From NCBI RefSeq assembly GCF_018139625.1, contig NZ_JAGSOH010000074.1, positions 1-38,827 of the forward strand: 38,827 nucleotides of DNA. Reading direction: 5' to 3'. The position numbers were made by a program, and so were the translations under genes. The stretch's first letter is position 1. Each line of letters begins with the position of its first letter. The stretch is from Actinospica acidithermotolerans (GTDB lineage: Bacteria; Actinomycetota; Actinomycetes; Streptomycetales; Catenulisporaceae). Below the pieces are notes generated by a model. That model was not told where the DNA came from and did not search any database. It worked only from the letters and a program-made list of their open reading frames with translations. Positions 5,954 through 38,827 of the stretch are shown here, piece by piece.

Positions 5954-5980
5954 GGGAATTTCCCAGCTTGCCCGAAGGTT
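5954..5980 (+). promoter_or_regulatory. SigR-type promoter (GGGAAT-N18-GTT)
   Basis: GGGAAT at 5954-5959 and GTT at 5978-5980 are separated by exactly 18 nt. That is the consensus known for the thiol-oxidative stress sigma factor SigR/SigH of actinobacteria (GGAAT-N18-19-GTT). It lies 77 nt upstream of the ATG of the membrane protein gene at 6057. The -35 box is also part of a small palindrome (GGGAATTTCCC). A sigR-like gene is present at 23.4 kb in this same window, so the regulator is available. Confidence 0.6.
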
Positions 5981-6056
5981 CAGGATGCATGCTGCGGTGA
6001 CGGAGCGGGGATCTTTACCAACAGCCCGCCGGACGACGACTTGGGGAGAGTGCGCC

Positions 6057-6713
6057 ATGGATTTCGACCTCGGCCCCTCCAGGATCCTGCCACGCTGGGT
6101 CGTCGTGTTCTTCCTCGGCGGCGCCGTGGTGCTGATCCCGTGGATCGTGCTGATGTTCACGGTGCCGGACGCGGTGGACGTGACCCGGCGCTGGGAGCTC
6201 GTCTGGGGCGGCTTCGACTGCTTCCTGGTTCTCGGCTTCGCGCGCACGGCCTTCAACCTGATCCGGCGCTCGCCGCGCGGCGCGGTCACCGCCGCGATGA
6301 CCGGCACGATGCTGCTGATCGACGCCTGGTTCGACGTGCTCACCACGCACCGCGGCGGCCAGCTGATATCGATCCTGATGGCCGCGTTCGCCGAGATCCC
6401 GTGCGCGCTGATCTGCTTCTACGTCTCCCGCCGGATCACCGACCTGTTCGAGCAGACGAAGGAGTACCTGGTCGCCGCCGGGTTCACCGTGCAGGCCGGC
6501 CGCGTGGTCCCGCCGGCCGGCTTCCCCGGCGCCGCGGTCCCGGCCGAGCCCCCGGCCGCGCCGGTCGCCGCCGCCGAGGCGGCGGGCCTCGGAAACGCAT
6601 CAGGGCCCGAACCCGCCGTGGCGGCGGATCCGGGCCCGGTGCTCCGGCAGATCTCAGAGCGCGGTCTTGGCGCTCCAGTAGGCCAGCAGGGGCTCCTCGC
6701 CGAGCAGCTCTAG
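6057..6713 (+). CDS. Four-TM membrane protein, putative SigR-regulon member
   Basis: 218 aa from ATG 6057, with GGGGAG 8-10 nt upstream; a longer in-frame start at 5985 would lie next to the predicted promoter and is less likely. Four hydrophobic segments are visible, at about residues 15-35, 48-65, 80-98 and 102-122 (WVVVFFLGGAVVLIPWIVLMF, FDCFLVLGFARTAF, AAMTGTMLLIDAWFDVL, ILMAAFAEIPCALICFYV). A cytoplasmic Ala/Pro-rich tail follows. I do not recognise a named family. The gene is convergent with the DinB-like gene and their coding ends overlap by 60 bp. Control by SigR is inferred from the promoter just upstream. Confidence 0.8.
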   Translation: MDFDLGPSRILPRWVVVFFLGGAVVLIPWIVLMFTVPDAVDVTRRWELVWGGFDCFLVLGFARTAFNLIRRSPRGAVTAAMTGTMLLIDAWFDVLTTHRGGQLISILMAAFAEIPCALICFYVSRRITDLFEQTKEYLVAAGFTVQAGRVVPPAGFPGAAVPAEPPAAPVAAAEAAGLGNASGPEPAVAADPGPVLRQISERGLGAPVGQQGLLAEQL

Positions 6714-9350: not shown

Positions 9351-10154
9351 TCAGTCCCCCGTGTCCTCGCCGAGATACGCCAGCAGCGCCTCGTGCAGCA
9401 GCCCGTTCGACGTCATCCCGGAACCGGCCGAGGGCGAGGGGTCCCCGTCCACGGCGCTGAACCGGCCCCCCGCCTCGGTCACGATGATCGCGGGCGCGGC
9501 CACGTCCCACAGGGACAGCTCCGGCTCAGCCGCGATGTCCACCGCCCCCTCGGCCACCAGCATGTGCGACCAGAAGTCCCCGTAGGCGCGGGTGCGCCAG
9601 CACGCCCGGGAGAGCGCCAGGAAGCCGTCGAGCTTGCCGTACTCCTCCCAGGAGATCACCGAGGAGTAGGCGAAGGAGGCGTCCTTGAGCTCCCTGACCT
9701 TCGAGACCTGCAGCCGGCTGGCCTGCGAGAGCGAGCGGCCGGTGTAGGCGCCGCCGCCGGCCGAGGCCCACCAGCGGCGGCCCAGCGCGGGCGCCGAGAC
9801 CACGCCGACGACGGGCCTGCCGTCCTCCATCAGCGCGATCAGGGTGGCCCACACCGGCACCCCGCGCACGTAGTTCTTGGTGCCGTCGATCGGATCGACG
9901 ATCCAGGTGCGCCGGCCGTCCGCGCGGCCCGCGACGGTGCCGAACTCCTCGCCCAGCATCGAGTCGCGCGGACGGGACCGGCCGAGCGCGCTCCGCAGCA
10001 GTTCCTCCACCGCCCGGTCGGCGTCGCTGACCGGGGTCAGGTCGGGCTTGGTCTCGACCTTGAGGTCGAGGGCCTTGAAGCGCTGCGTCGTGAGCGAATC
10101 AGCCTGATCCGCCAGCACGTGCGCGAGCCTGAGGTCGTCGTCGTATCCCGTCAC
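9351..10154 (-). CDS. hisN: Inositol-monophosphatase-family histidinol-phosphatase (HisN)
   Basis: 267 aa from GTG 10154. The Li-sensitive phosphatase motifs are complete: GEEFG (about 68-72), WIVDPIDGTKNY (about 84-95) and LWDVAAPAIIVTEAGG (about 219-234) supply the metal ligands Glu, Asp, Asp and Asp. Actinobacterial proteins of this size and sequence hydrolyse histidinol phosphate in histidine synthesis; an inositol phosphatase function is the alternative. In many actinomycetes hisN sits directly beside aroA-rsgA, but here it is about 9.7 kb away and coupled to a dedA gene instead. Confidence 0.85.
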   Translation of the reverse strand: MTGYDDDLRLAHVLADQADSLTTQRFKALDLKVETKPDLTPVSDADRAVEELLRSALGRSRPRDSMLGEEFGTVAGRADGRRTWIVDPIDGTKNYVRGVPVWATLIALMEDGRPVVGVVSAPALGRRWWASAGGGAYTGRSLSQASRLQVSKVRELKDASFAYSSVISWEEYGKLDGFLALSRACWRTRAYGDFWSHMLVAEGAVDIAAEPELSLWDVAAPAIIVTEAGGRFSAVDGDPSPSAGSGMTSNGLLHEALLAYLGEDTGD

Positions 10155-23382: not shown

Positions 23383-24066
23383 GTGGGCATGATCGCGGAT
23401 CACGGCCGTCCCGCGGCGTCGGCGGACGTCGAGGACACGCTCGCCGTCGGCGCCGAACCCGAGGCCGCCGCGCTCGACGGGGAGACCCCGGCGGAGCGCG
23501 ACGCGCGGTTCGAGCGGGACGCGATGCCGTACCTCGACGCGCTCTACTCGGCCGCCCTGCGGATGACCCGCAACCCGGCCGACGCCGAAGACCTGGTGCA
23601 GGAGACCTACGCCAAGGCGTACGCGTCCTTCCACCAGTTCCGGCCCGGCACGAACCTCAAGGCCTGGATGTACCGCATCCTGACGAACACCTTCATCAAC
23701 GGCTACCGGAAGAAGCAGCGCGAGCCGCTGTCCGCCGGGACCGACGAGATCGAGGACTGGCAGCTGCACCGCGCCGAGTCGCATACCTCCACCGGGCTGC
23801 GCTCGGCCGAGGTCGAGGCGCTCGACCACCTGCCCGACTCGGACGTCAAGGAGGCGCTGCAGTCCATCGGCGAGGACTTCCGGATGGCGGTGTATCTCGC
23901 GGACGTCGAGGGCTTCCCGTACAAGGAGATCGCGGACATCATGGGTACACCCATCGGCACGGTGATGTCCCGGCTGCACCGGGGACGGCGCCAACTGCGG
24001 GAACTGCTGGCCGACTACGCGGAGCAGAGGGGCTTCGGCGGCGAGAAGAAGGAGACGGTGTCATGA
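23383..24066 (+). CDS. sigR: ECF sigma factor SigR/SigH (thiol-oxidative stress)
   Basis: 227 aa from GTG 23383 with GGAGG 11 nt upstream; ATG 23389 is an alternative. Region 2 ([70 protein letters not shown]) and region 4 ([39 protein letters not shown]) are nearly diagnostic for the SigR/SigH group. SigR directs transcription of thioredoxin, mycothiol and protein quality-control genes during disulfide stress. The frame continues upstream; an in-frame ATG at 23227 would add 54 residues, close to the 55-residue unstable form sigma-R prime of S. coelicolor. The stop overlaps the rsrA ATG (ATGA). Confidence 0.92.
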
Positions 24067-24383
24067 GCTGCGGCCACCCGCACGACGACTGCGCGTCGGT
24101 GCTCGAACACGTCTATGAGTACATCGATCACGAGATGGCGGACGACGACCTCGCCACCGTGAAGCAGCACCTCGACGACTGCAGCCCCTGCCTCGCCGAA
24201 TACGGTCTCGAGCAGGCGGTGAAGTCGCTGGTGCACCGCTGCTGCTCGGAGGTGGCGCCGGAGGACCTGCGGGCCAAGGTGCTCTCCAAGATCCGCCAGG
24301 TCCAGGCCGGCGCGGTGGCCGAGGCCGACCGCGTCCCGGCCGAGGAGCCGGACGCCGCGAAGCAGAGCCCGGCCCTGTCGTAG
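24063..24383 (+). CDS. rsrA: Redox-sensing zinc anti-sigma factor RsrA
   Basis: 106 aa from ATG 24063, overlapping the sigR stop, so the pair is translationally coupled. Residues C10, H36, C40, C43, C60 and C61 correspond one-to-one, offset by one, to the S. coelicolor RsrA set C11, H37, C41, C44, C61 and C62. The HxxxCxxC zinc anti-sigma motif is QHLDDCSPC. Oxidation forms a disulfide (C10-C43 by analogy), expels zinc and frees SigR. The tail after residue 80 is Ala/Glu-rich and variable. Confidence 0.95.
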
Positions 24384-24659: not shown

Positions 24660-26420
24660 ATGCCGCAGCGCGCACGGTACTTCTTCTCCGCCGTGATCGC
24701 AGCGGCGGCGATCGTCGGGGCCTGCGTGCTGCCGGAGACCGACTGGGCGCACGTGCCCCGCGCCCCCTTCCTGGTCCTGCTGCTGCTGCAGGTCGTGCTG
24801 AACCTCACCATCAGGCTGCCGGACACCCAGGAGAGCCCGGCCGGGCCGGCCATGGTCTCGGTGCTGCTGGCCGCGATCGTGCTGCTGCCGCCCGGCGCCG
24901 CCGCGCTGACCGGCGCGGTCGGCTCCTCGTGCATGGTGCTGCGGCGCGGCGATCCGCTGCGCGTCGCCTTCGCCTGCGCCGTCGCCTTCCTGGCCGCCGC
25001 GGCCGCGGGCGGGGTCTACCGCGCCGCCGACGGCTACGTCGCGCTGACCGGCTCGGACTTCCCGCGCGCGCTGCTGCCGATAGGCCTCGCCGTGCTGGTG
25101 CTCAGCATGGTCCCGGCCGCGCTGATCGAGGCCTTCCTGGTGCAGGCCGGACGGCAGACGCCGCGGGCCGCGTGGCGCGACTTCGAGCTCAGGATGGTCC
25201 CGCGCAACATCGCCTACGCCCTGGTCGGCCTGCTCACGGCGGTCCTGTGGAGCGTGTCCTACGACGCGCTGGCCGCGATCGTGCTGCTCGGCCCGGTGGT
25301 CGTCACCCGCTGGGCCACGGTGCAGTACGAGGAGCAGCGGATCGCGCACGACGCGATCATCAGGACCCTGGTCCAGGCCGTCGAGATCAAGGACCTCTAC
25401 ACCCGCGGGCACAGCGAGCGGGTCGCCAAGATCAGCGAGATGATCGCCGCCGAGCTGCGGCTGACGCCGGAGCGCGTCGAGGTGCTGCGGTACGCGGCGA
25501 CCCTGCACGACGTGGGCAAGCTCGGCGTGCCGACCCGGCTGCTGCGCAAGACCGAGCGGCTGGACGACGAGGAGTTCGAGGAGATCCGGCTGCACCCCTC
25601 CCGCGGCGTCGAGGTGGTGCGCGACATCGCCTTCCTGGACGAGGCGTACAGCGCGATCCTGCACCACCACGAGCGGATGGACGGGCTCGGCTATCCGAGC
25701 GGCCTGCGCGGTATGAGGATTCCGCCGTTCGCGCGGATCATCGCGGTGGCCGACGCCTTCGACTCGATGACCTCGACCCGCTCCTACCGCGGCGCCCGCG
25801 GCTCCGACGAAGCGCTGACCGAGCTGCGCGCCAACGTGGGCAGCCAGTTCGACCCGGCGATCGTGGACGCGATCGCGGCCGCGCTCTCCCGCGCCGAGCT
25901 CTCCGGCCGCCCGTGGCGCGGCGACGGCACCGCCTGCCCGAACGGCCGCGGCGGCCGGCCGGAGCTCGCCGAGCTGCCGCCCGGGGCCGTCGTCGCCCAG
26001 TTCGACCACGACGACCCCGCGTACCAGTTGCTCGCCGTGGACCTCGAGCTCGCCGAGAAGCCGCAGTCCGACGACTACGCGCCCGGCCCCGATCCCGAGG
26101 CCGAGCCCTCGATAGACGAGCCGGAGTACGCCGACCCGGACTTCGCCGGCCTGGAGTCCGTCGTGCTGGAGTCCGCCGAGCGCGAGTCCGCCGAACCGGC
26201 GTCCGTCGTGCTGGAGTCCGCCGAGCGCGAGTCCGTGGCGGCCGAGGCCGCCGAACCGGAGTCCGCCGACGCCGGGTTCGCCGAGCACGCGGCGCCGCGC
26301 GAGGAGCTGCGCCTCGGCCCTTTTCGCCCCGAGCTGAACCTGCCCGCGCAGGCCAAGCGGGAGGCGAAGGCCGATCTCGACGCCCCGACGAACACGGGCC
26401 CTGAGACGGAGGCTCGATGA
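24660..26420 (+). CDS. Membrane-anchored HD-GYP domain phosphodiesterase/hydrolase
   Basis: 586 aa from ATG 24660. About six hydrophobic segments occupy residues 5-215. The HD-GYP domain (about 230-400) is intact: H251, the HD pair H283-D284 with K286 (LHDVGKLG), the HHHERMDGLGYPSGL motif (335-349), and DAFDSMTSTRSYR. Intact HD-GYP domains usually degrade cyclic di-GMP or related cyclic dinucleotides. After about residue 420 the sequence is acidic and repetitive, with two 15-residue copies of SVVLESAERES type. The stop overlaps the next ATG (ATGA), coupling it to a second HD gene. Confidence 0.9.
   Translation: MPQRARYFFSAVIAAAAIVGACVLPETDWAHVPRAPFLVLLLLQVVLNLTIRLPDTQESPAGPAMVSVLLAAIVLLPPGAAALTGAVGSSCMVLRRGDPLRVAFACAVAFLAAAAAGGVYRAADGYVALTGSDFPRALLPIGLAVLVLSMVPAALIEAFLVQAGRQTPRAAWRDFELRMVPRNIAYALVGLLTAVLWSVSYDALAAIVLLGPVVVTRWATVQYEEQRIAHDAIIRTLVQAVEIKDLYTRGHSERVAKISEMIAAELRLTPERVEVLRYAATLHDVGKLGVPTRLLRKTERLDDEEFEEIRLHPSRGVEVVRDIAFLDEAYSAILHHHERMDGLGYPSGLRGMRIPPFARIIAVADAFDSMTSTRSYRGARGSDEALTELRANVGSQFDPAIVDAIAAALSRAELSGRPWRGDGTACPNGRGGRPELAELPPGAVVAQFDHDDPAYQLLAVDLELAEKPQSDDYAPGPDPEAEPSIDEPEYADPDFAGLESVVLESAERESAEPASVVLESAERESVAAEAAEPESADAGFAEHAAPREELRLGPFRPELNLPAQAKREAKADLDAPTNTGPETEAR
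26156..26235 (+). repeat. In-frame 45-bp period repeat in HD-GYP C-terminus
   Basis: A 35-bp block at 26156-26190 is repeated exactly at 26201-26235 (period 45 bp, 15 codons). It encodes SVVLESAERES within an acidic Ala/Glu/Ser tail; additional degenerate copies surround it. Confidence 0.8.
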
Positions 26421-27859
26421 CCGGCGCCGACCGCTACTTCCGCCGGCCGGGCCCCTTTCCTGAGCAGGCTGGCCCGCGCCCGCAGGCGCGGCACCACGTC
26501 GTCGCCACGCCGGTGCTGCTCGGCTGCCTGCTCGCGGCGGGTGTGCTCGCGGCGGTGCTGAAGCTGTTCGTGCACGGCCCGGTCCAGGTGGCCGACGCCA
26601 TCGCCTTCGGCGCGGTGATCGCGGTCGGCGAGGCGCTGCGGATCACTCTGCCGGGCGGCCGGGACAACGCGCCGCTGGCCGCCACCGCGTCGCTCGGCTA
26701 CGCGCTGACCACCACGATCGGCGGCAAGCCCGCGCTCTGGGGCCCGGTGCAGGTCGTCGTCGTGGTCGCGGTCGCCGCCGTGATCGGCTCGATCCCGCAG
26801 GCGATCGCCGGACGCCCGGCCCCGATCGGGTACCTCGTCCGGCGTATCGGTGTGACCGCGATGATCGCCTGGCTGCTCCGTTCGGTGCTGGCCTCGACCG
26901 TCGTGTCGGCCACGCACACCGAGCGCTTCCTGCTGCTGAGCGCGATGGCGATCCTCGCCCTGCTGATCGACCCCGGGCTCGCGGCCGTGTTCGCGACGTC
27001 CTCCGGGTACTACGCGAACGGCTCGCTGATCGGCCACTCCGAGTACGGCGACTCGTCCTTCGGCCAGGTCAGGCCGCCGCAGCACGCTGCCGTGCCGCGC
27101 AGCATGAAGCGCTTGCTCGGCCGCTGGTTCGAGGAATGCGCGGCCACGGCGCGGGTCTGCCCGGCCGTCGCGGCGCTGTCCGTCGCGACCGCCCTCGCCG
27201 CCGATCCGCTCGGCCTGTGGGTGCTGCCGGTCGCCGCCGTGCCGGTCCTCGTGATGCAGCGGGCGCTGCGCCGCTACTCGGCGATCCGCGCCACCTACCA
27301 GCAGACGATCCGCGCGCTGTCCCGGATGACCGACCTCGCCGGGTACACCGACCCCGGCCACGCCCGCCGCGTGTGCCGGCTGGCCCTCGCCATCGGCCGC
27401 GACCTGGACCTGACCGAGCCGGAACTGCTCGACCTCGAATACGCGGCGCTGCTGCACGACATCGGCCAGCTCTCCCTCGCCGACCCGCTGCCCGGCGGCG
27501 CCACCGTGCTGGCCACGCCGTGGGTCGCGGCCGAGGTGGCGGCTCGCGGCGCGGAGGTCGTCCGGCAGACCGGCGTGCTCGACCGCGTCGCGCGGGTGCT
27601 GGAGGCGCAGCCGCTGTCCTACCGGGCCCAGCTCGCCGTCTCCGAGGCCGCAGTCGGGGACGACGAGGCGGTCGGCGACGAGAGCGAGCGCCGGGCCGCC
27701 GCGATCCTGCGGGTGGCCAACGACTTCGAGGACCTGCGCACCGCCGAGCCAGGACCCGCCGCGCACGTCAGGGCCCTGGCGCGGATGAGACGCGGGATAG
27801 GCGACCCGTACGACCCGCGCGCCGTCGAGTCGCTCACCAGGCTGGTCCCGGCCGAATGA
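26417..27859 (+). CDS. Membrane HD-domain protein, degenerate HD-GYP partner
   Basis: 480 aa from ATG 26417, overlapping the upstream HD-GYP stop by 4 nt. It has the same plan: several membrane segments in residues 30-280, then an HD domain with H315 (GHARRV) and H347-D348 (LLHDIGQLS). The second half of the domain has lost the HHE...DGxGYP block: the matching region reads GVLDRVARVLEAQPLSYRAQ. It may keep a metal site but is probably not a normal HD-GYP enzyme. A partner or regulatory role for the upstream protein is plausible given the coupling. Similar HD-GYP gene pairs occur in actinomycetes, but I know no demonstrated role. Confidence 0.85.
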   Translation: MTGADRYFRRPGPFPEQAGPRPQARHHVVATPVLLGCLLAAGVLAAVLKLFVHGPVQVADAIAFGAVIAVGEALRITLPGGRDNAPLAATASLGYALTTTIGGKPALWGPVQVVVVVAVAAVIGSIPQAIAGRPAPIGYLVRRIGVTAMIAWLLRSVLASTVVSATHTERFLLLSAMAILALLIDPGLAAVFATSSGYYANGSLIGHSEYGDSSFGQVRPPQHAAVPRSMKRLLGRWFEECAATARVCPAVAALSVATALAADPLGLWVLPVAAVPVLVMQRALRRYSAIRATYQQTIRALSRMTDLAGYTDPGHARRVCRLALAIGRDLDLTEPELLDLEYAALLHDIGQLSLADPLPGGATVLATPWVAAEVAARGAEVVRQTGVLDRVARVLEAQPLSYRAQLAVSEAAVGDDEAVGDESERRAAAILRVANDFEDLRTAEPGPAAHVRALARMRRGIGDPYDPRAVESLTRLVPAE

Positions 27860-27910
27860 CGCCGGAGCCGGGTATCCGTGCCGTTCCCCCGGGATTGGTA
27901 GTGTTCAGCC

Positions 27911-28126
27911 ATGAGCGAAGTGGTCCGCGCGGAGATGGTGGCGAACGTCGCCGAGGTGCACGTCGAGGCCGGTGACGAGGTCGGGGCCGGGACCGCGCTG
28001 GTGCTGCTGGAGTCCATGAAGATGGAGATCCCGGTGCTCTGCGAGTTCGGCGGCACGGTGACCGAGGTCCAGGTCGTGCCCGGCGACGTGCTCCAGGAGG
28101 GCGACGTCATCGCCGTTCTCGGCTGA
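27911..28126 (+). CDS. Stand-alone biotinyl/lipoyl attachment domain protein
   Basis: 71 aa from ATG 27911. It is essentially one biotinyl domain, with the modification site K37 in ESMKMEIPV flanked by two half-motifs (EVHVEAGDEVGAGTALVLLE and VTEVQVVPGDVLQEGDVIAVLG). Small proteins of this kind serve as biotin carriers for acyl-CoA carboxylases or transcarboxylases, yet no carboxylase gene is nearby. There is no Shine-Dalgarno sequence; TAGTGT 6 nt before the ATG suggests a leaderless transcript. A biotin-related gene, bsaP-like, follows 11 bp downstream. Confidence 0.93.
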   Translation: MSEVVRAEMVANVAEVHVEAGDEVGAGTALVLLESMKMEIPVLCEFGGTVTEVQVVPGDVLQEGDVIAVLG

Positions 28127-28137
28127 CGCGCGACCCG

Positions 28138-28338
28138 ATGGCCATGACCGACTCCGTCCCCACCGCCCCGTACTGCGGCCACTGCGGCGAGCCCGCGCCG
28201 AGCCCGCATCCGGCCTGCGAAGCGCGCCTGGCGCTCGAGCCGCCGCGCTACTGCGCCCAGTGTCGCAGGCGGCTGATCGTCCAGGTGCTGCCCACCGGCT
28301 ATCGCGCCCGCTGCTCCGCGCACGGCGACCTCGGTTGA
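28138..28338 (+). CDS. bsaP: BsaP-like biotin synthase auxiliary protein (zinc/iron-sulfur ribbon)
   Basis: 66 aa from ATG 28138 (ATG 28144 is an alternative). The protein has YCGHCGEP, then ALEPPRYCAQCRRRLIVQVLPTGYRARCSAHG, with cysteines at 13, 16, 27, 39, 42 and 59. This closely follows the family, first studied in mycobacteria, whose product supports the radical-SAM biotin synthase BioB. It is normally next to bioB; here it sits 11 bp after a biotin carrier domain gene and no bioB is in view. The identification is from memory of the motif EPPRYC..C.RRxxVQVxPTG.xArCSxHG. Confidence 0.75.
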   Translation: MAMTDSVPTAPYCGHCGEPAPSPHPACEARLALEPPRYCAQCRRRLIVQVLPTGYRARCSAHGDLG

Positions 28339-28368: not shown

Positions 28369-28412
28369 CCGCCCAAGCCCGCGCGCCGGCCCGCCCAACC
28401 CCGCGCGCCGGC
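28369..28412. repeat. 22-bp tandem duplication next to the GNAT stop
   Basis: Units 28369-28390 and 28391-28412 differ at one position; both end in GCGCGCCGGC. The second runs into the reverse stop codon (CTA 28412-28414) of the GNAT gene, in the convergent gap with the BsaP-like gene. Confidence 0.7.
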
Positions 28413-28915
28413 TAAAGCTCCAGCACGTACGCGCGCAGCATGAGGTCCGTGGTCGGCGCCCAGTCCCGCTCCGGGACCCGGGTGAAGCCGAGCCGGCCGT
28501 AGAGCCGATGCGCCGCGACGTGCTGCGGGCCCGTGGAAAGCACGAGACGCGGCGCCCCCGCGAGCTTCGCGCGGTCTATGCACGCGCGCACCAGGGATTC
28601 GCCGACGCCGCGGCCGCGCGCCGGTGCCGCCGTCGCCAGCATCCGGAACTCCGCCTCGGCACCCGTCGCCAGGTCCTGCCACGGCGAGCCGGGCGCGGCG
28701 TAGACGACGGTGCCGAGGAGGTCTTCGGGCTCCTCGGCACCGTCGTCGAACGCGACGAGCAGGGTGGTGGCCGGCGATTCCCAGCGGGCCCGGGCATCGC
28801 GCAGCACCTGCACGTACTCCGGGCCGGCCAGGCCGTCGGCTTCGTACACCTCGGCGGTCAGCGCGCCGATCCGATCCAGCTCTGCTTCCCGCGCCTCGCG
28901 CACCACCAGATCCAT
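28412..28915 (-). CDS. GNAT family N-acetyltransferase
   Basis: 167 aa from ATG 28915 (an ATG at 28936 would add 7 residues). Standard single-domain GNAT: VREAREAELDRIGALTAEVY at the N-terminus, EFRMLATAAPARGRGVGESLVRACID with the acetyl-CoA loop RGRGVG at about 104-109, and VLSTGPQHVAAHRLYGRLGFTRVPERD. The length and the ending DLMLRAYVLEL match the compact actinobacterial type. Substrate is unknown. It stands alone, convergent with the BsaP-like gene and 33 bp downstream of the symporter stop region on the same strand. Confidence 0.92.
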   Translation of the reverse strand: MDLVVREAREAELDRIGALTAEVYEADGLAGPEYVQVLRDARARWESPATTLLVAFDDGAEEPEDLLGTVVYAAPGSPWQDLATGAEAEFRMLATAAPARGRGVGESLVRACIDRAKLAGAPRLVLSTGPQHVAAHRLYGRLGFTRVPERDWAPTTDLMLRAYVLEL

Positions 28916-28948
28916 ACACGCGATCTTACGTGGCAAGGGACGCGCCGC

Positions 28949-30589
28949 TCAGACGGTCTCCGGCTCCGTCGTCACGCTCGCCGTCTGCTCGAGATCGCTG
29001 TCATGGTCGTAATCGGCCGGTGACGTGGCGTCGACCCCGGCCGGCGCCTTGATCGCGCGGAGCACGAGGTTCGACACCACGAGCACGACCAGGTTGACCA
29101 CGAGCGCGGTGACGGCGATGTATGCCTTCTGATGCGTCCACGGGATCAGCGCCACCTGCGAGGCGAAGTGGTGCTGCGTGGCCGAGGACTGCTGCCACGC
29201 GACGACGGTGCCGTACACGATGCCCGCCGCCCAGCCCAGCAGCAGCGCCCAGCGGTGGAAGTAGCGCGTGTACAGGCCGCCGACGATCGCCGGGAAGGTC
29301 TGCAGGATCAGCACGCCGCCGAGCAGTTGGAAGTTGATCGCGCTGGTGGCGTCCAGGCCGAGCACGAAGGCGAGCGCCCCGAACTTGACCAGCAGCGAGA
29401 CCCACTTCGAAACGTTCGTCTGCTGCGAGTCGGTCGCGGCCGGATTGACGAAGTCGACGTAGATGTTGCGGGTGAACAGGTTCGCCGCCGCGATCGACAT
29501 GATCGCCGCCGGGACCAGCGCGCCGATGACGATCGCCGCGAGCGCGATCCCGGCGAACCAGGACGGGAACATCGCGTCGAACAGCGCCGGAACCGCGTGC
29601 TGAGCGTTGCCCCCGAGGCTCTTGCCGGTGAACCCGGCGGCGATCGCCATGTAGCCGAGCAGGGCGACGAAGCCGAGCATCAGCGAGTAGACGGTCAGCG
29701 CGGAGACGTTGCGGCGCACGGTGCTGCGCTGCTTCGTGGCCAGCACGCCGATCTGCGCGTGCGGGTACATGAACAGCGCCATCGCCGAACCGATCGCGAG
29801 CGTGGCGAACGGCAGGGTGCCGCCGTGGGCCAGCAGCGTCGAACCGGCGGGCAGGTGCGTCACCGGGTTCTTGGCCGCGAGCCGGGTGCTCGCCGCGCCG
29901 AAGATGTGCGTCCAGCCGCCGAGGCGGGTCGGGATGTAGATCACTGCGACGAGGATCGTCACGTAGATCAGCAGGTCCTTGACGAACGCGATCATCGCCG
30001 GGGCGCGCAGGCCGGAGGTGTAGGTGAACGCGGCGAGGATGATGAAGGCGACGAACAGCGGCAGGTCCTGGGCGAAGGAGGAGCTGTTCGAGCCGATGCC
30101 CATCACGTACAGCACGGACTGGATGCCGACGAGCTGCAGCGCGATGTACGGCATCGTCGCCACGATCCCGGTGACCGCGATCGCCAGCGACAGCGAGCGG
30201 GAACCGTGCCGGCCCTTCACGAAGTCGGCCGGGGTGACGTACCCGTGCTTACGGGAGACCGACCACAGCCGCGGCAGGAAGATGAACACCAGCGGCCACA
30301 CCAGGATCGTGTATCCGACCGCGAAGAAGCCGAGCGCGCCGCCGGCGAACAGCGCGGCCGGGACCGCGACGAATGTATAGGCGGTGTACAAATCCCCGCC
30401 GATCAGGAACCAGGTGATGAAGCCGCCGAAGGAGCGGCCGCCCAGTCCCCATTCGTGCAGATGCTGCGGAGAGCCGGTGCGCCGCCAGCGCGCGGCGAGG
30501 AAGCCGAGCACGGCGACGAGTACGAACAGCGCCGTGACCACGCCGAGTTCGACGCCGTGCACGCCGGTGGAGGCCGCGAGGTACCTCAT
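28949..30589 (-). CDS. Sodium:solute symporter (SSS family), MctP-like
   Basis: 546 aa from ATG 30589. About thirteen transmembrane helices are expected; the N-terminal part shows GGRSFGGFITWFLIGGDLYTAYTFVAVPAALF, the sodium/substrate region of SSS proteins, and later GALVPAAIMSIAAANLFTRNIYVDF, a conserved SSS motif. Sequence style and the DUF3311 partner resemble the monocarboxylate/acetate permease branch. The start codon overlaps the DUF3311 gene stop (ATGA), so the two are coupled. It ends in an acidic cytoplasmic tail. Substrate (pyruvate, acetate, propionate or similar) is inferred only. Confidence 0.92.
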   Translation of the reverse strand: MRYLAASTGVHGVELGVVTALFVLVAVLGFLAARWRRTGSPQHLHEWGLGGRSFGGFITWFLIGGDLYTAYTFVAVPAALFAGGALGFFAVGYTILVWPLVFIFLPRLWSVSRKHGYVTPADFVKGRHGSRSLSLAIAVTGIVATMPYIALQLVGIQSVLYVMGIGSNSSSFAQDLPLFVAFIILAAFTYTSGLRAPAMIAFVKDLLIYVTILVAVIYIPTRLGGWTHIFGAASTRLAAKNPVTHLPAGSTLLAHGGTLPFATLAIGSAMALFMYPHAQIGVLATKQRSTVRRNVSALTVYSLMLGFVALLGYMAIAAGFTGKSLGGNAQHAVPALFDAMFPSWFAGIALAAIVIGALVPAAIMSIAAANLFTRNIYVDFVNPAATDSQQTNVSKWVSLLVKFGALAFVLGLDATSAINFQLLGGVLILQTFPAIVGGLYTRYFHRWALLLGWAAGIVYGTVVAWQQSSATQHHFASQVALIPWTHQKAYIAVTALVVNLVVLVVSNLVLRAIKAPAGVDATSPADYDHDSDLEQTASVTTEPETV

Positions 30590-32777: not shown

Positions 32778-35700
32778 CCGATGCCACCGGCCCCGGCGAG
32801 CTCCTCAAGCCAAGCCGCCGCCGGCTCGTACTCGACGACCTTCATCCGCCCATACAGATCCACCGCGGCGCGCAGATGCTCCACCCCTGACTCCAGCATC
32901 CCCAGCCGTACCTCGCACCGCGCCATTCCCTCCAGCGCCCGCGCCTTCTCCAGCGGATGCTCGGCCCTGACCGCGAGATCCAACGCATCCCGGTACAGCG
33001 CCAGTCCCGCCTCGGCGCCGTTCGATGCGGCCCGGTACGCGGCGATGGTGTTCCGGACCTCCGCCTCTCCGACCAGGTACTGGGCTTCGAGGTTGATCTG
33101 CAGCGCCCGGTCGAGGTGCGGCGCGACGAGATCGAGTTCACCCGCCGCGCAGAGCAGTTTCGCGAGTTCGTTCCTGGCCTGCGCTTCGCCGAAGGCGTTC
33201 CTGATCTCAAGGCTGAGATCCAGCGACCGGGTGAGCCAGCCCTCTGCGACATCGACGTGCCCTTGCGCGGCTGCGATGCGGCCGCGCTCGAAGTAGATGT
33301 TGGCCTCGCCGAGTCTGAAGCCGATCTCCAGGTGCAGGGTCAGCGCCTCGTCCAACTTGTCCGCAGCCGCCTCGAAGTCCCCGGTGAGCAGCTGCTGACG
33401 CCCGATTTCCTGCAGTACGTTCGCAGTGGAGATCTTGTTCGCGGTCTGCCGTGTCAGCTCGAGGCCGCGGTCGAGCATCGGCCGTACCGCGCCGAAATCC
33501 TCGAGCGCGTAGGCCGCGCGGCTGCTGGTGAGCAAGGTGTTCGCTTCGCCGTCCTTTGATCCGGCCGCCCGGTAGAGGTCGGCTGCCTGCGCGAAGTGCT
33601 CACGAGCGCTCGCGTTGCGGCCCTCGCAGTGGGCGAGTATCGCGAGGCGGAAGACCACGCCGGCCAGCAGGACCGGGGGACCGACCTCACGGTAGATGGC
33701 GCTCGCCTGTTCGTACGGTTCGACGGCGAGGTGGTTGTCGCCGCGTTGGAAGTGCGTCGCCCCGATGGAGCTCAGGACGTCGGCCTCCGCGCGCCGGTCG
33801 CCGAGTTCTCGGACGATGGCCAGCGCTCGCCCCAGATGATCGAGCGCTGTTTCGGCTTCGCCGAGTCCGCAGATGGCGACGCTCAGCTCGCAGAGGATGC
33901 GCACTTCTTCGGCTCGGTCGCTTCGATCGCGGGCCGAGGCCAGCAGGATCGTCAGCAGTTCCGCCGCCGTGCTCCAAGGCCCCTCGGACCGGTGGAACTC
34001 GGACAGGGCATCGATGAGTGTGTCGCGTCGGTGGGTGCCCGTGGACGGGTGCGCGATGAGCGCCAGCAGGTTCGCGTGTTCGGTGCGGCGCCAGAGCCGT
34101 GCCGAGGACAGTTCGGCGAGGTCCGGGAAGGGCTTGATCACCTTGGATACCCGCTGGGCCAACAGCCGGGGGGCCGGGCCGTCCGCGGCGCAGGCGACGG
34201 CGAGGTAGTAGTCCACCAGCCGGTCGAAGGCGCCGGTGGAAACTGCGGGATCCTCGGCGGCGAGGGTGCGGGCGTGGGCACGCAGGAGGTCGTGGAGGCG
34301 GTAGCGGCCGGGGGTGTGCTGAATCAGCAGGTTGTGGTCTAGCAGGGTACTGAGGTGGTGCTCGGCGGTGGAGAGGTCGGTGGCGGCGAGGTGGGCGGCG
34401 GCGTAGAGGTCGAAGTCGGGTCCCGGGACCAGGCCCAGCAGGCGGAACAGTTGCTGCGCGAACTCGGGAAGTATGCGGAGCGAGGCGTTGAAGACGGTGG
34501 TGAGGTCGCGGTCGTCGTCCTGGAGGCCGGCCAGCCGGTTGGCCTCCTCGGCCAGTTCGGCTGTCAGCGTCTCGACGGTCAGAGTGCTGTCGTGGCGGAG
34601 GCGGGCGGCGACGATGCGCAGGGCCAGGGGCGTGTGGGCGCAGAGGGTGGCGAGTTCGGCTGCGGCGTCGGCGCGGGCGGCGAGGTCGGCTGCGCGGGCG
34701 GGGCCGGCAACTTCGCGGAGCAGGGCCGCGGCGTCGTCGTGGGAGAGGACGTCCAGGGCCAGCAGGTGTGCACCGTCCAGGCTGGTCAGGCGGTTTCGGC
34801 TGGTGACGAGGACCAGACAGCCGGGTGCTGCGGGCAGCAGGGGACGGACCTGGGCCGCGTTCACGGCGTTGTCGAGGACGATGAGGGTTCTGGTGCCGGC
34901 GAGCTTGGAGCGGTACAGGGCGGTGCGGGCTTCTACATCGCCTGGGATTGCCTGCGGGGGCACTCCCAGAGAGCGCAGCAGGTAGTCGAGGGCGTCTTCG
35001 GGGGCTATCGGATCGAGGTCCGCGGCGTAGCCGTGGAGGTCGATGAAGAGTTGGCCGTCGGGGTAGCAGTCGCGCATGCGGTGCGCGGCGCGGATGGCTA
35101 ATGCGGTTTTGCCTACGCCGCCCATGCCATTGATGGCGGAGATGACCACCGTGCCCGAGGGCTGGGCTCCCGATCCATCGGTGGCACGTGACGTCAGTTC
35201 GTCGAGTTCGGAGTGGCGGCCGGTGAATAGGCGGGTGTCGGCGGGGAGTTGGCGTGGTGTGGGGAGTGCTGAACGGGGAGTTCCCGTGCCGACGGAGGTG
35301 GAGGTGTTGAGCGACGGAGGCACGGCGAGCGACGGGGACGCGTTGAAGATGTTCCTACGCAGGGCCTGGATCGCGGTACCTGGCTCGCCGCCTAGTTCGG
35401 CGATCGTAGTGCGGCGCAGGTCGCGGTAGACGTCTAGGGCGTCGGTGCGGCGGCCTGCGCGGTAGAGGGCGAGCATGAGTTGGGCGTGTAACGCCTCGCG
35501 GAGCGGGTTCGAGACGGTCAGGACCTTGAGTTCATCGATGATTTCGGCGTGGCGCCCCAGGTTGAGGTCGGCCTCGATGCGTCCTTGGAGGGCGACGAGT
35601 CGGTCCTCGGCGTAGCGCTGGATGGCCGGATGGCTGTGCAGGGCGGGGACGTCGACGAGCATTTCGCCGCGCCACAGGTCCAATGCCGCGGCGTAGAGCT

Positions 35701-36055
35701 TTCTGGCGCTGAGCCACTCGGCGGATGCGGCTGCCTCGTTGGCCTGGACGAAGTGGTCGGTGAAGGCCGCGAGGTCGAGGTCTGCGGGGGCCACGTGCAG
35801 GAGGTAGCCCGGCGGCACGGCGCGGATCAGGGCACTGTCGCCAAGGGCCTGGCGAAGGCGCATTAGTTGGTTGTGCAAGGGCGCGCCGGAATCGGCTTTG
35901 TCGCCCCAGAGCAGCTGGACGAGCCGATCCGCGTGGACGACGGTGTCGTGGTCCAGGACCAGGGCGGCGAGGAGGGCGCGGCGGAGCCGGCCGCGGATCG
36001 GGATCTCGGTTCCGTCGGACCAGACGCGGAGCGGGCCGAGCAGGGAGTAGCGCAT
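32774..36055 (-). CDS. SARP-type regulator with NB-ARC ATPase and TPRs (AfsR-like), second of two
   Basis: 1093 aa from ATG 36055. Domain order: OmpR-like winged helix (1-90; RLRRALLAALVLDHDTVVHADRLVQLLWG), bacterial transcriptional activation domain (95-240), NB-ARC ATPase with Walker A GMGGVGKTA (310-318) and Walker B TLIVLDNA (about 388-395), then many tetratricopeptide repeats from about 680 to the end. AfsR-like proteins activate secondary metabolism or development genes in response to phosphorylation or nucleotide. It starts 1 nt after the stop of its paralogue and is surely co-transcribed. Target genes are not identifiable here. Confidence 0.94.
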   Translation of the reverse strand: MRYSLLGPLRVWSDGTEIPIRGRLRRALLAALVLDHDTVVHADRLVQLLWGDKADSGAPLHNQLMRLRQALGDSALIRAVPPGYLLHVAPADLDLAAFTDHFVQANEAAASAEWLSARKLYAAALDLWRGEMLVDVPALHSHPAIQRYAEDRLVALQGRIEADLNLGRHAEIIDELKVLTVSNPLREALHAQLMLALYRAGRRTDALDVYRDLRRTTIAELGGEPGTAIQALRRNIFNASPSLAVPPSLNTSTSVGTGTPRSALPTPRQLPADTRLFTGRHSELDELTSRATDGSGAQPSGTVVISAINGMGGVGKTALAIRAAHRMRDCYPDGQLFIDLHGYAADLDPIAPEDALDYLLRSLGVPPQAIPGDVEARTALYRSKLAGTRTLIVLDNAVNAAQVRPLLPAAPGCLVLVTSRNRLTSLDGAHLLALDVLSHDDAAALLREVAGPARAADLAARADAAAELATLCAHTPLALRIVAARLRHDSTLTVETLTAELAEEANRLAGLQDDDRDLTTVFNASLRILPEFAQQLFRLLGLVPGPDFDLYAAAHLAATDLSTAEHHLSTLLDHNLLIQHTPGRYRLHDLLRAHARTLAAEDPAVSTGAFDRLVDYYLAVACAADGPAPRLLAQRVSKVIKPFPDLAELSSARLWRRTEHANLLALIAHPSTGTHRRDTLIDALSEFHRSEGPWSTAAELLTILLASARDRSDRAEEVRILCELSVAICGLGEAETALDHLGRALAIVRELGDRRAEADVLSSIGATHFQRGDNHLAVEPYEQASAIYREVGPPVLLAGVVFRLAILAHCEGRNASAREHFAQAADLYRAAGSKDGEANTLLTSSRAAYALEDFGAVRPMLDRGLELTRQTANKISTANVLQEIGRQQLLTGDFEAAADKLDEALTLHLEIGFRLGEANIYFERGRIAAAQGHVDVAEGWLTRSLDLSLEIRNAFGEAQARNELAKLLCAAGELDLVAPHLDRALQINLEAQYLVGEAEVRNTIAAYRAASNGAEAGLALYRDALDLAVRAEHPLEKARALEGMARCEVRLGMLESGVEHLRAAVDLYGRMKVVEYEPAAAWLEELAGAGGIG

Positions 36056-36056
36056 G

Positions 36057-38516
36057 TCAGAGATCTTCGCCGTCGGCGGGTCCGGTCAGCTCGGCGAGGT
36101 ACCCCTCCGCCCGGGCTGCCTCGGGTCCGGTCAGCTCGGCGAGGTACCCCTCCGCCCGGGCCGCCTCGGGTCCGGTCAGCTCGGCGAGGTACCCCTCCGC
36201 CCGGGCCGCCTCTGGCACGGCCAGCTGACGGTAGATCTCGACGGCCTCCCGCTGCGCCTGCACGGCCCGCGGCCGGTCGGTGTCCGCGAGGCACGTGGCG
36301 ATGCCGGCGAGGGCTTCCGCCTGGAGCGCCGCGGCGTCCACGTCGCGTGCGCTGGTCAGGGCCTTGCGATACCAGGCGAGTGCCGCTTCGGTATCGCCGA
36401 CGTCTGCGACGAGTGCGCCCATCAGAATCCACGCCTCCGCGCGCCCGACCTCGTCGCCCGCGTGCTCGTAGGCGGCGATGGCGGCGGTCAGCAGATCCCG
36501 GGATTCCCCGACCTGCTCCAGCAGGGCCAGCAGGTTGCCGCGCTCGGCGGAGATCCAGGCGACCGCCTCCGCGTCGTCTCGCAGTGGCCTGACGACGGCG
36601 AGGTTCGCCGCCCGGCGCGCGGACGGCGGCCGCACCTGGCGGGCGAGCCGGTCGGCGGCGACCTGGGCGGTGGACTCGTAGTAGTCGAGCAGCCGGTCGA
36701 ACGCCGCGCCCTGCTCGCCGGGCGGGGCGGCGAGGCCGCGGGCGAACGCGCGCAGCAGGTCGTGCATCCGGTAGCGGCCGGGCGCGTGCTCGGCCAGCAG
36801 GTTCTGCTCGAGCAGCGAGTCGAGCAGCCGGCCCGCCTCCCGCAGCGGGGCGTCGAGCAGGTTGGCCGCGGCGTATGCGTCGAGGTGCATGCCGGGCAGC
36901 GGGCCCAGCAGCCGGAACAGCCGCGCCTCGGGCTCCGGCAGCCCGCGGTAGGAGGACTCGAAGACGCCGGCCAGGGTCCGCTCCTCGTCCCGCAGGCCCT
37001 CCATCATCCGGTCCGGCTCCGCGCGCAGCTGAGCGACGAGCCCGGCGACGGTGGTCCCGCGGTGGTGCCGCAACCGGGATGCGACGATCCGCACGGCGAG
37101 CGGGACGAAGCCGCACAGCTCGACGAGTTCGCGCGCGGCGGGTTCTTCCGCCGCGATCCGGTTCTCCCCGGCGACCATGCGCAGCAGCGCGATCGCCTCG
37201 TCCGGGGCCAGCGCGTCGAGCGCGAAGAAGTGCGCGTCGTCCAGGCCCATCATCCGGTTCCGGCTGGTGATCAGCACCACGCAGCCCGAGGTGCCGGGCA
37301 GCAGCGGCATGACCTGCGCCGTGCTGGCGGCGTTGTCCAGCAGGATCATCGTCCGGGTGCCGGCCAGCCGGGAGCGGTAGAGCGCCGCGCGCTCGTGCGG
37401 GTCGGCCGGGATCGCGCGCGGCTCGACGCCGAGCGAGCGCAGCAGGTAGTCCAGCGCGTCCTCGGCGCTCAGCGGCGCGAGTTCGGCGTCGTAGCCGCGC
37501 AGGTCGATGAACAGCTGGCCGTCCGGGAAACGCTCGGCCAGCCGGTGCGCGGACCGCACGGCCAGCGCGGTCTTGCCGATCCCGGCCATCCCGTTGATCG
37601 CGGAGATCACGAACATCCCGGCCTCTTCGTCCGCGTTCTGCGCCAGCGCGACCAGCTCGTGGAACTCGGCCGCCCGGCCGGTGAACAGCCGCGCGTCCAC
37701 CGGAAGCTGGCGCGGCACGTGCCGGGGCGCCGGGGTGCCGACCGCCGCGGGCGTGGCGGGGCTCTGCTTCGGCAGGCTCAGCGACGCGGCCGAGTCGAGG
37801 ATGTCGGCGTGCAGCGCCTGCACCGCCGCGCCTGGCTCCACCCCCAGCTCGTCGACCGTGGCACGCCGCAGGTCCCGGTAGACGGCCAGGGCGTCGGCCT
37901 GGCGTCCGGCGCGGTAGAGGGCCAGCATCAGCTGCGCGTGGAACGCCTCGCGCAGCTGGTACGACACTGTCAGGGTTCTCAGTTCGCCGATGAGTTCGTC
38001 GTGGCGGCCGAGGTTGAGGTCCGCCTCGATCCGGCCCTGCAGCGCCAGCAGCCGGTCCTCCGCGAATTGGTGCACGGAGGCGTGGTCCAGCAGCGTCGGG
38101 ACGTCGACCAGCATCTCGCCGCGCCACAGGGCCAGCGCCGCCGCGTAGCGGGTGGCCGAGCGCGCCCAGTCGCCGTCCGCCGCGGCCTGCCGCGCCTGGG
38201 CGCAGAGTCCGGAGAACTCGTCGAGGTCCAATTCATCGGGCTCGACGTGGATCAGATAGCCGGGGGCGACGGCCTGGATCCGCTCGGCGTCCGGTCCCAG
38301 GGCCTGGCGCAGCCGCATGATCTGGTTGTAGAGCGAGGTCGTGGTGGACGACGGCGGCCTATCGCCCCAGATCATGTCGCCGAGCCGGTCGGCGGAGACC
38401 ACGGAGTCGCGGTGCAGCAGCAGCGCGGCGAGCAGCGTGCGTCGCAGGGTCCCGCGAATCTCCACGGGGCCGTCCTCGCCGTGCACCTGCACGGGTCCGA
38501 GCAGAGCGAAACGCAC
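36057..38516 (-). CDS. SARP-type regulator with NB-ARC ATPase (AfsR-like), first of two, with C-terminal repeats
   Basis: 819 aa from GTG 38516, chosen because the protein then opens VRFALLGPVQVHGEDGPVEIRG, matching its paralogue; AAGG lies just upstream. Winged helix and BTAD domains (1-245), NB-ARC with Walker A GMAGIGKTA (309-317) and Walker B TMILLDNA, the NB-ARC motif ITSRNRM, and a shorter helical-repeat tail from about 640. The C-terminus consists of three copies of the 15-residue unit EAARAEGYLAELTGP. It resembles the downstream gene over its first 550 residues (I estimate well over 50 percent identity in the DNA-binding part), so the pair arose by tandem duplication. Confidence 0.93.
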   Translation of the reverse strand: MRFALLGPVQVHGEDGPVEIRGTLRRTLLAALLLHRDSVVSADRLGDMIWGDRPPSSTTTSLYNQIMRLRQALGPDAERIQAVAPGYLIHVEPDELDLDEFSGLCAQARQAAADGDWARSATRYAAALALWRGEMLVDVPTLLDHASVHQFAEDRLLALQGRIEADLNLGRHDELIGELRTLTVSYQLREAFHAQLMLALYRAGRQADALAVYRDLRRATVDELGVEPGAAVQALHADILDSAASLSLPKQSPATPAAVGTPAPRHVPRQLPVDARLFTGRAAEFHELVALAQNADEEAGMFVISAINGMAGIGKTALAVRSAHRLAERFPDGQLFIDLRGYDAELAPLSAEDALDYLLRSLGVEPRAIPADPHERAALYRSRLAGTRTMILLDNAASTAQVMPLLPGTSGCVVLITSRNRMMGLDDAHFFALDALAPDEAIALLRMVAGENRIAAEEPAARELVELCGFVPLAVRIVASRLRHHRGTTVAGLVAQLRAEPDRMMEGLRDEERTLAGVFESSYRGLPEPEARLFRLLGPLPGMHLDAYAAANLLDAPLREAGRLLDSLLEQNLLAEHAPGRYRMHDLLRAFARGLAAPPGEQGAAFDRLLDYYESTAQVAADRLARQVRPPSARRAANLAVVRPLRDDAEAVAWISAERGNLLALLEQVGESRDLLTAAIAAYEHAGDEVGRAEAWILMGALVADVGDTEAALAWYRKALTSARDVDAAALQAEALAGIATCLADTDRPRAVQAQREAVEIYRQLAVPEAARAEGYLAELTGPEAARAEGYLAELTGPEAARAEGYLAELTGPADGEDL
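36081..36215 (-). repeat. Three 45-bp in-frame repeats at the 3' end of a SARP gene
   Basis: Units 36081-36125, 36126-36170 and 36171-36215 are almost identical (only one or two changes). Each codes for EAARAEGYLAELTGP, ending about 21 bp before the stop codon. Near-identity points to recent expansion and probable copy-number variation between strains. Confidence 0.9.
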
Positions 38517-38827
38517 CGAGCCTTCTTCCTTCCGACCATCGGCCCGTCCCCGGAGCGCGACAGCCAGATAGTAGCCCGACGCGGTGCGTGACCGGAACAG
38601 GGTTATGTGACCGGCGTGGTAGTCGGACGGTAGGCGGGTCCGCCATGCTGGGGCCAGGTGCCCGGGTGCACGCGAAGCGTTCGCGAGCGTGCGCACGCGG
38701 TGATCGGCCGTTGATTCCCTTCGCGCGGCGGCGATCGCCTGCGGGGTGCCGGCTCGTGCGGGGGCCGGCGGGGTCGGTGGGCCCCTGCCGGCCCCCGGCC
38801 GTCGGCGGCGTCCTCGGGAGGGGAGGG
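38517..38827. other. Upstream region of the SARP pair (window edge)
   Basis: About 310 bp without a supported gene. On the minus strand TACTAT (38568-38573) is a good -10 candidate about 50 nt before the GTG. A perfect hairpin CGCGAA-GCG-TTCGCG lies at 38671-38685. The remainder to the edge is GC-rich; the neighbouring gene is outside the window. Confidence 0.4.

What the first reader, a model, noticed from the sequence alone, without database searches (positions are those of the whole stretch)
27911..28338. Orphan biotin module: biotinyl carrier domain beside a BsaP-like protein, without bioB or a carboxylase
BsaP-type proteins are known as helpers of BioB, usually encoded next to it. Here the gene is 11 bp after a stand-alone biotinyl domain. 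The pairing suggests a link between biotin synthesis and carrier supply, or a second role for BsaP on another enzyme.
Basis: partly seen in the sequence, partly recalled or inferred. Interest (0 to 1): 0.55.

Follow-up and report, generated by a model that had tools for sequence, protein, structure and literature searches.

The report
Biotin helper gene, not an orphan
A small helper gene for making the vitamin biotin sits beside a small biotin-carrying protein gene in a soil actinobacterium; the biotin synthase gene it most likely serves appears to lie just past the end of the sequenced piece, and this grouping is an old, widely shared gene neighbourhood rather than a new system.

Summary
The two genes are real and correctly placed: 27911-28126 is a TB7.3-type stand-alone biotinyl carrier (NF004547) and 28138-28338 is BsaP (NF052237), 11 bp apart. 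"Orphan, without bioB" is an artefact of the contig end. The genome has bioD and the start of bioB at the edge of another contig. Synteny with two Actinospica relatives puts the rest of bioB in a gap of about 0.6 kb just past window base 38827, about 10.5 kb from bsaP. The bioB fragment carries two BsaP-type marker residues. No second bsaP was found. The pair is conserved: in 100 bsaP-bearing genomes outside family f6, TB7.3 lies within 1.5 kb of bsaP in 63 and bioB in the fetched stretch in 92. But in 27 of 40 examined genomes with TB7.3 and no bsaP, TB7.3 lies beside sigR-rsrA, and Actinospica durhamensis deleted TB7.3, fusing its start to bsaP. So the "pair" is the seam between a sigR-rsrA-TB7.3 block and a bsaP-bioB block; a second role for BsaP is not supported.

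The parts
27911..28126 (+). TB7.3-type stand-alone biotinyl carrier protein, 71 aa; biotin-acceptor Lys37 in ESMKMEI
   Evidence: NF004547 104.6 bits over cut-off 75; PF00364 50 bits; Lys at -35 from the C-terminus
28138..28338 (+). BsaP, biotin synthase auxiliary protein, 66 aa; C13,C16,H24,C27 and C39,C42,C59,H62
   Evidence: NF052237 83.7 bits over cut-off 39; the only hit over cut-off in the genome; these six Cys and two His conserved at 0.98 or more in 107 homologues, family f6 not included
27899..27904 (+). TAGTGT, possible -10 element 6 bp before the carrier's ATG, possibly giving a leaderless carrier-bsaP transcript (TANNNT motif recalled)
   Evidence: read; GGTASTGTTC shared with G001 and G002 upstream of the same start (in G002 a short tandem duplication makes the start ambiguous); inference, no transcript data
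23482..24066 (+). sigR/sigH-type ECF sigma factor (approximate start, inside a longer ORF)
   Evidence: TIGR02947 353 bits over cut-off 251.55
24063..24383 (+). rsrA-type anti-sigma factor
   Evidence: TIGR03988 98.9 bits over cut-off 62.5
24660..26420 (+). HD-domain protein 1 of the sigR-rsrA-HD-HD-TB7.3 block
   Evidence: PF13487 135 bits; homologue in 30 of 100 bsaP regions
26417..27859 (+). HD-domain protein 2 of the same block
   Evidence: PF13487 33 bits; homologue in 29 of 100 bsaP regions; the counts for the two HD proteins probably overlap, since they share a domain
28412..28936 (-). GNAT acetyltransferase after bsaP
   Evidence: PF00583; homologue in 14 of 100 bsaP regions, median gap 33 bp between frames
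28949..30589 (-). Sodium:solute symporter between bsaP and the inferred bioB
   Evidence: PF00474; homologue in 11 of 100 bsaP regions
38481..38827 (.). End of contig; extrapolating from two relatives, the bioB 3' end lies a few tens of bases beyond this point, on the - strand
   Evidence: G002: 38481 = L126 7054, C4 base 1 = L126 6078, bioB model match L126 5747-6658; G001 agrees

Best explanation
bsaP at 28138-28338 is the only BsaP found in the genome and most likely serves the BsaP-type biotin synthase encoded about 10.5 kb downstream on the other strand, most of which falls in an assembly gap between this contig (C394) and contig C4. BsaP probably works as described for mycobacteria: a small metal-binding protein that lets BioB put sulfur into dethiobiotin (its chemistry is inferred from Qu et al., not shown here). 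The 71-aa carrier is a TB7.3-type biotin acceptor, biotinylated on Lys37 (inferred). Its wider linkage is to the sigR-rsrA(-HD-HD) block. The two genes touch because this locus is the seam between the sigR-rsrA-TB7.3 block and the bsaP-bioB block, an arrangement seen in eleven families of the sample. In Actinospica bsaP points the same way as TB7.3 and probably shares its promoter, so the two are probably co-transcribed (inferred). Nothing seen requires a new role for BsaP or a direct BsaP-carrier interaction.
For: Both families over curated cut-offs. One bsaP in the genome and one per genome in all 15 bsaP-bearing genomes of the relatives sample, two of them one-contig assemblies. bioB start and bioD on C4; own BioB with Glu at both testable BsaP-type positions. 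Synteny puts bioB just past the window end, leaving a ~0.6 kb gap that the missing part of bioB fills. 63/100 regions with TB7.3 within 1.5 kb, 92/100 with BioB, 56/100 with SigR, 56/100 with RsrA, 48/100 with TB7.3, BioB and RsrA together. In 40 examined genomes with TB7.3 but no bsaP, 27 have TB7.3 beside sigR-rsrA and none has BioB there. A. durhamensis deleted TB7.3 and kept bsaP and bioB.
Against: The C394-C4 join is inferred, not sequenced. The Cys128 position of the own BioB is in the gap, so only two of the published markers were tested. TB7.3 and bsaP co-occur (118 of 135 bsaP genomes have TB7.3 against 112 of 259 others), and the seam is seen in eleven families, which could mean a functional link; relatedness was not removed from these counts, and 45 of the 63 regions are from two families, f19 and f20. 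13 of 40 TB7.3-only regions show no sigR/rsrA (some on short contigs), and the 40 were picked by me from printed places, out of 112 such genomes. In 38 named loci with BsaP, TB7.3 is near in only 2.
Confidence: 0.86

Rival explanations
1. The three biotin genes (TB7.3, bsaP, bioB) form a functional unit: the carrier takes up or stores biotin made by BioB-BsaP, or signals biotin status, and selection keeps them together next to the thiol-stress sigma factor.
For: Adjacency in eleven families with two main orientations; co-occurrence 118/135; bsaP and TB7.3 both without a match in the 39 f2 genomes that have a bioB, and 6 of 6 f2 bioBs examined are of the other type.
Against: TB7.3 found in 107 genomes without a bioB match and beside sigR-rsrA without bsaP (27 of 40); 17 of 135 bsaP genomes gave no TB7.3 match at E 1e-18; TB7.3 deleted in A. 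durhamensis; in the 11 f6 genomes with both places printed on one contig they lie at least 0.9 Mb apart.
Confidence: 0.1
2. BsaP here serves a second enzyme other than BioB.
For: Divergent BsaP-like proteins exist without a BsaP-type BioB: G311 (no bioB match, 5 contigs) and G421 (beside a Cys128-type BioB).
Against: The window's BsaP scores far over the cut-off and the genome has a BioB with BsaP-type residues; 131 of 135 bsaP genomes have bioB (counting the own fragment), and three of the four others (G161, G212, G258) are drafts of 380 or more contigs.
Confidence: 0.03
3. The adjacency is recent and accidental in this genome.
For: None found.
Against: TB7.3 within 1.5 kb of bsaP in 63 of 100 regions, from 9 families, within 0.5 kb in 13 of 14 other bsaP-bearing relatives (f1 and f3), and in named Actinomadura flavalba.
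Confidence: 0.01

Closest known systems
BsaP (Rv1590 / Msmeg3195), Qu et al. 2024, PMC11099021
   Same: NF052237 equivalog; the conserved Cys-x2-Cys ... Cys core; own BioB fragment has the Glu/Glu markers of BsaP-associated BioB.
   Different: Not directly downstream of bioB; codirectional with TB7.3 instead. Has an N-terminal Cys-x2-Cys ... His-x2-Cys motif that the three Mycobacterium/Nocardia/Rhodococcus sequences examined lack.
TB7.3 (Rv3221c), biotinylated protein, NF004547 family
   Same: 71 aa, SMKM motif, Lys at -35; downstream of a SigH/SigR-RsrA pair (the mycobacterial gene order is recalled).
   Different: Two HD-domain genes lie between rsrA and the carrier, and bsaP follows it.
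sigR-rsrA thiol-stress locus of actinobacteria
   Same: sigR and rsrA models over cut-off upstream.
   Different: Here it runs on into TB7.3, bsaP and, by inference, bioB-bioD.

Membership tests
BsaP (NF052237) | Score over the curated cut-off | tested here: met
   83.7 bits against 39
BsaP (NF052237) | Three conserved Cys (Cys44, Cys47, Cys64 of the M. tuberculosis protein) | tested here: met
   C39, C42, C59 in the window; frequency 1.0 in 107 sequences
BsaP (NF052237) | Genome encodes a BsaP-type BioB | tested here: met
   Own BioB fragment has Glu at the Ser43 and Arg95 positions of E. coli BioB (positions placed by motif from recall); the Cys128 position is in the gap
BsaP (NF052237) | Gene directly next to bioB | tested here: not met
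   About 10.5 kb apart by synteny; usual but not defining: bioB and bsaP at separate sites still complement
BsaP (NF052237) | Required for dethiobiotin-to-biotin conversion | not testable with these tools
   Needs a mutant or an enzyme assay
TB7.3 / NF004547 biotinyl carrier | Score over cut-off and stand-alone length | tested here: met
   104.6 bits against 75, 71 aa
TB7.3 / NF004547 biotinyl carrier | Biotin-acceptor Lys, 35th from the C-terminus, in MKM | tested here: met
   Lys37 of 71; rule quoted from a passage of PMC3048393
TB7.3 / NF004547 biotinyl carrier | Biotinylated in the cell | not testable with these tools
   Needs a streptavidin blot
   bioB start on C4 and synteny to the window end

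The most novel reading that the evidence does not exclude
sigR-rsrA-TB7.3-bsaP-bioB is an ancestral actinobacterial redox-biotin supercluster in which the thiol-stress sigma factor block and biotin synthesis are kept together for a reason (repair of an oxygen-sensitive, sulfur-sacrificing BioB under thiol stress, with TB7.3 as a biotin buffer). In it the general form of BsaP carries two four-ligand metal sites (C-x2-C...H-x2-C and C-x2-C...C-x2-H/C), of which the characterised mycobacterial protein keeps only the second.
Probability: 0.15. Interest if true: 0.6.

Novelty: new member of a known kind. Interest (0 to 1): 0.3.

Why it matters
It shows that this bsaP is very probably not an orphan and that bsaP need not sit beside bioB. 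It places BsaP-BioB and the little-studied carrier TB7.3 in one widely shared neighbourhood beside sigR-rsrA. I did not see that neighbourhood described in the papers found, but most of those were seen only as search listings. The extra N-terminal Cys/His motif and the His-to-Cys swap at the last ligand position suggest a fourth metal ligand in BsaP that can be tested.

Tried and rejected
Second bsaP in the own genome: only weak hits (C83 at 38% identity, E 0.007, which the BsaP model did not pick up; 13.7 and 13.2 bits against a cut-off of 39); rejected. BATS domain search of the own genome: none, explained by the gap. PDB sequence search with BsaP: best hits are CxxC stretches of disulfide isomerases (best E 0.002), rejected as motif chance. 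Structure model of BsaP (mean pLDDT 85): best Foldseek E 0.66 and no chain at Z 2; weak zinc-ribbon hits are not used as evidence. A sigma-R promoter before the carrier: looked for by eye from a recalled consensus, not seen. In one search two control queries (YedK, EPSPS) were cut from wrong coordinates and are dropped; the other far-neighbour controls (DUF3311, SWEET, ROK, SARP) gave 1, 0, 0 and 1 of 100. The BioB tree is a quick tree with 31 of 93 inner branches open; its counts (5 changes of bsaP strand against bioB, 13 of TB7.3 proximity) are parsimony counts on it. The alignment of G001 with the window was poor across the deletion; the deletion is read from the blastn blocks.

Full report
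What is there. 27911-28126 encodes a 71-aa biotinyl carrier that passes NF004547 (104.6 bits, cut-off 75), and 28138-28338 a 66-aa protein that passes the BsaP equivalog NF052237 (83.7 bits, cut-off 39). Eleven bases separate them. Upstream lie sigR (TIGR02947), rsrA (TIGR03988) and two HD-domain proteins. Downstream lie a GNAT protein, a sodium:solute symporter, a DUF3311 protein, a PQ-loop protein, a ROK protein and a BTAD/NB-ARC/TPR regulator.

The organism. The window is the whole contig C394 of a 7.9 Mb, 422-contig genome. Its same-genus relative G001 is Actinospica durhamensis CSCA 57: contig length 31,578 in both collections, and 324 of 360 sampled 50-mers shared, which is what the overlap of the two fetched stretches allows. 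So the window is from the genus Actinospica, as the genome collection groups it.

bioB is not missing. The bioB model finds a truncated start at C4:9-329 (98.8 bits, under the cut-off of 225, model positions 4-111 of 307). Just upstream is a bioD-like gene (Pfam AAA_26; named bioD from sequence and position, no bioD model was run). No BATS domain is in the assembly, so the C-terminal part is in a gap. In G002 (one contig) window base 38481 aligns to L126 base 7054 and C4 base 1 to L126 base 6078; the bioB model match lies at L126 5747-6658. Extrapolated over the last 346 bases, the window ends at about L126 6708, leaving a gap of about 630 bp; bioB's 3' end lies a few tens of bases past the window end. 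G001 gives the same picture with a gap of about 650 bp. The distance from bsaP is therefore about 10.5 kb, on the opposite strand; in G002 and G001 it is 8.4 and 8.6 kb. Such a gap, taken up by the missing part of bioB, has no room for a second bsaP, and none was found elsewhere.

BioB type. Qu et al. (PMC11099021; parts 1 to 3 of 7 of the text read, plus passages) list residue changes that mark BsaP-associated BioB. At the positions of E. coli Ser43 and Arg95 the own fragment has Glu and Glu; the Cys128 position is in the gap (the positions were placed by motif, with the E. coli sequence recalled). G001 and G002 have Glu, Glu and Ala. Six of six bioBs examined from family f2 have Asn at the first position and keep the Cys, and no f2 genome is among the bsaP or TB7.3 matches of the class sample, which has 39 f2 genomes with bioB.

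Conservation of the pair. Of 147 genomes in the relatives sample, 15 have bsaP, one copy each. In 14 of these 15, window included, a NF004547 carrier over cut-off lies within 0.5 kb of bsaP; the exception is G001. Of 394 genomes of the class, 135 have bsaP, 230 TB7.3 and 195 bioB at the thresholds used (E 1e-4, 1e-18, 1e-30). I fetched the surroundings (at most about 9.9 kb each side, clipped at contig ends) of bsaP in 100 genomes, that is all class genomes with bsaP except G000 and 34 of family f6. TB7.3 is present in 63 of 100, always within 1.5 kb, in 41 within 0.5 kb; BioB in 92 (65 within 0.7 kb); SigR in 56; RsrA in 56; TB7.3, BioB and RsrA together in 48. Nine families have TB7.3 near bsaP there, f20 (31 of 33) and f19 (14 of 15) giving 45 of the 63; f1 and f3 make eleven. 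Family f16 (0 of 9) and fourteen smaller ones (20 genomes) have none. In 32 loci TB7.3 is upstream and codirectional, in 31 convergent. In a set of 96 loci with a long BioB, 62 of them with TB7.3, bsaP is opposite to bioB and with TB7.3 in 30, with bioB and opposite to TB7.3 in 29, with both in 3. In 39 named records, found with exact peptide patterns of this BsaP and so a biased set, 38 have BsaP by profile; TB7.3 was near in 2 (Actinomadura flavalba and a Catenulisporales MAG), and 35 show bioB directly upstream of bsaP on the same strand.

Which linkage is wider. I fetched 40 regions around TB7.3 in genomes without bsaP, picked from the places printed, out of 112 such genomes. SigR and RsrA were found in 27 of 40, codirectional in 26; BsaP and BioB in 0 of 40. 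So TB7.3 travels with sigR-rsrA without a bsaP or bioB beside it. Of 230 TB7.3 genomes, 107 gave no bioB match. For f6, in 11 genomes with both places printed on one contig the two genes lie at least 0.9 Mb apart.

A natural deletion. In A. durhamensis (G001, 97% complete) no carrier over cut-off was found. The blastn blocks jump from window 27947 (in the carrier's 13th codon) to 28171 across only 23 bases of G001, and the G001 bsaP frame has what was the carrier's start: MSEVVLAQTAAN... against MSEVVRAEMVAN.... The promoter-like GGTASTGTTC before the start is shared by window, G001 and G002. So bsaP seems to have taken over the carrier's start, and the carrier can be lost while bsaP and a BsaP-type bioB are kept. 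G001 is a draft of 940 contigs, so this one case could still be an assembly fault.

How BsaP may work. The mechanism is that of Qu et al.: BsaP is needed by BioB for sulfur insertion, and their data suggest an Fe-S cluster on three conserved Cys. Across 107 sequences here (f6 not included) six Cys and two His are conserved at 0.98 or more: C13, C16, H24, C27 and C39, C42, C59, H62. In two of two Solirubrobacter sequences the last His is Cys, and in Mycobacterium tilburgii, Nocardia and Rhodococcus (three sequences) the whole N-terminal motif is absent. I infer that H62 is the fourth ligand of the functional site and that most BsaPs have a second site. The predicted model (mean pLDDT 85, 23 sequences) gave no significant fold match.

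Verdict. The genes are ordinary members of known families; the orphan reading fails; the conserved seam is worth knowing and its function is open.

Noticed in passing
L127 (G001:C876) about 5960-6200; compare window 27911-28171: In Actinospica durhamensis a deletion of about 200 bp removed most of the carrier gene and joined its first codons in frame to bsaP.
   Followed up: yes
L264, L266, L267, L268, L269 (BsaP frames): Mycobacterium, Nocardia and Rhodococcus BsaP (one sequence each) lack the N-terminal CxxC...HxxC motif present in nearly all 107 others aligned; two Solirubrobacter sequences have Cys in place of the C-terminal conserved His.
   Followed up: partly
L195 (G311) 9501-9770 and L218 (G421) 9447-9614: Divergent BsaP-like proteins without a BsaP-type BioB: one genome with no bioB match, one beside a bioB that keeps the Cys128-type residue.
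   Followed up: partly
L045-L050, L052, L053 against L056, L058-L065: Seven of ten genomes of genus g2 (G003, G005-G007, G009, G011, G012) carry two bioB genes, one BsaP-type and one of the other type elsewhere.
   Followed up: partly
Regions L126-L130 and L134-L233: bsaP points with TB7.3 in about half of the loci that have both and with bioB in the other half; the quick BioB tree needs five changes of strand.
   Followed up: partly
window 34268-38481: G002 and G001 sequence aligns to two neighbouring stretches of the window, 34268-35976 and 36525-38481 (G002 values), suggesting two tandem related BTAD/NB-ARC-type regulators, the second running towards the contig end.
   Followed up: no
window 24660-27859: Two adjacent HD-domain proteins after rsrA, with homologues near bsaP in five families; role unknown.
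   Followed up: no
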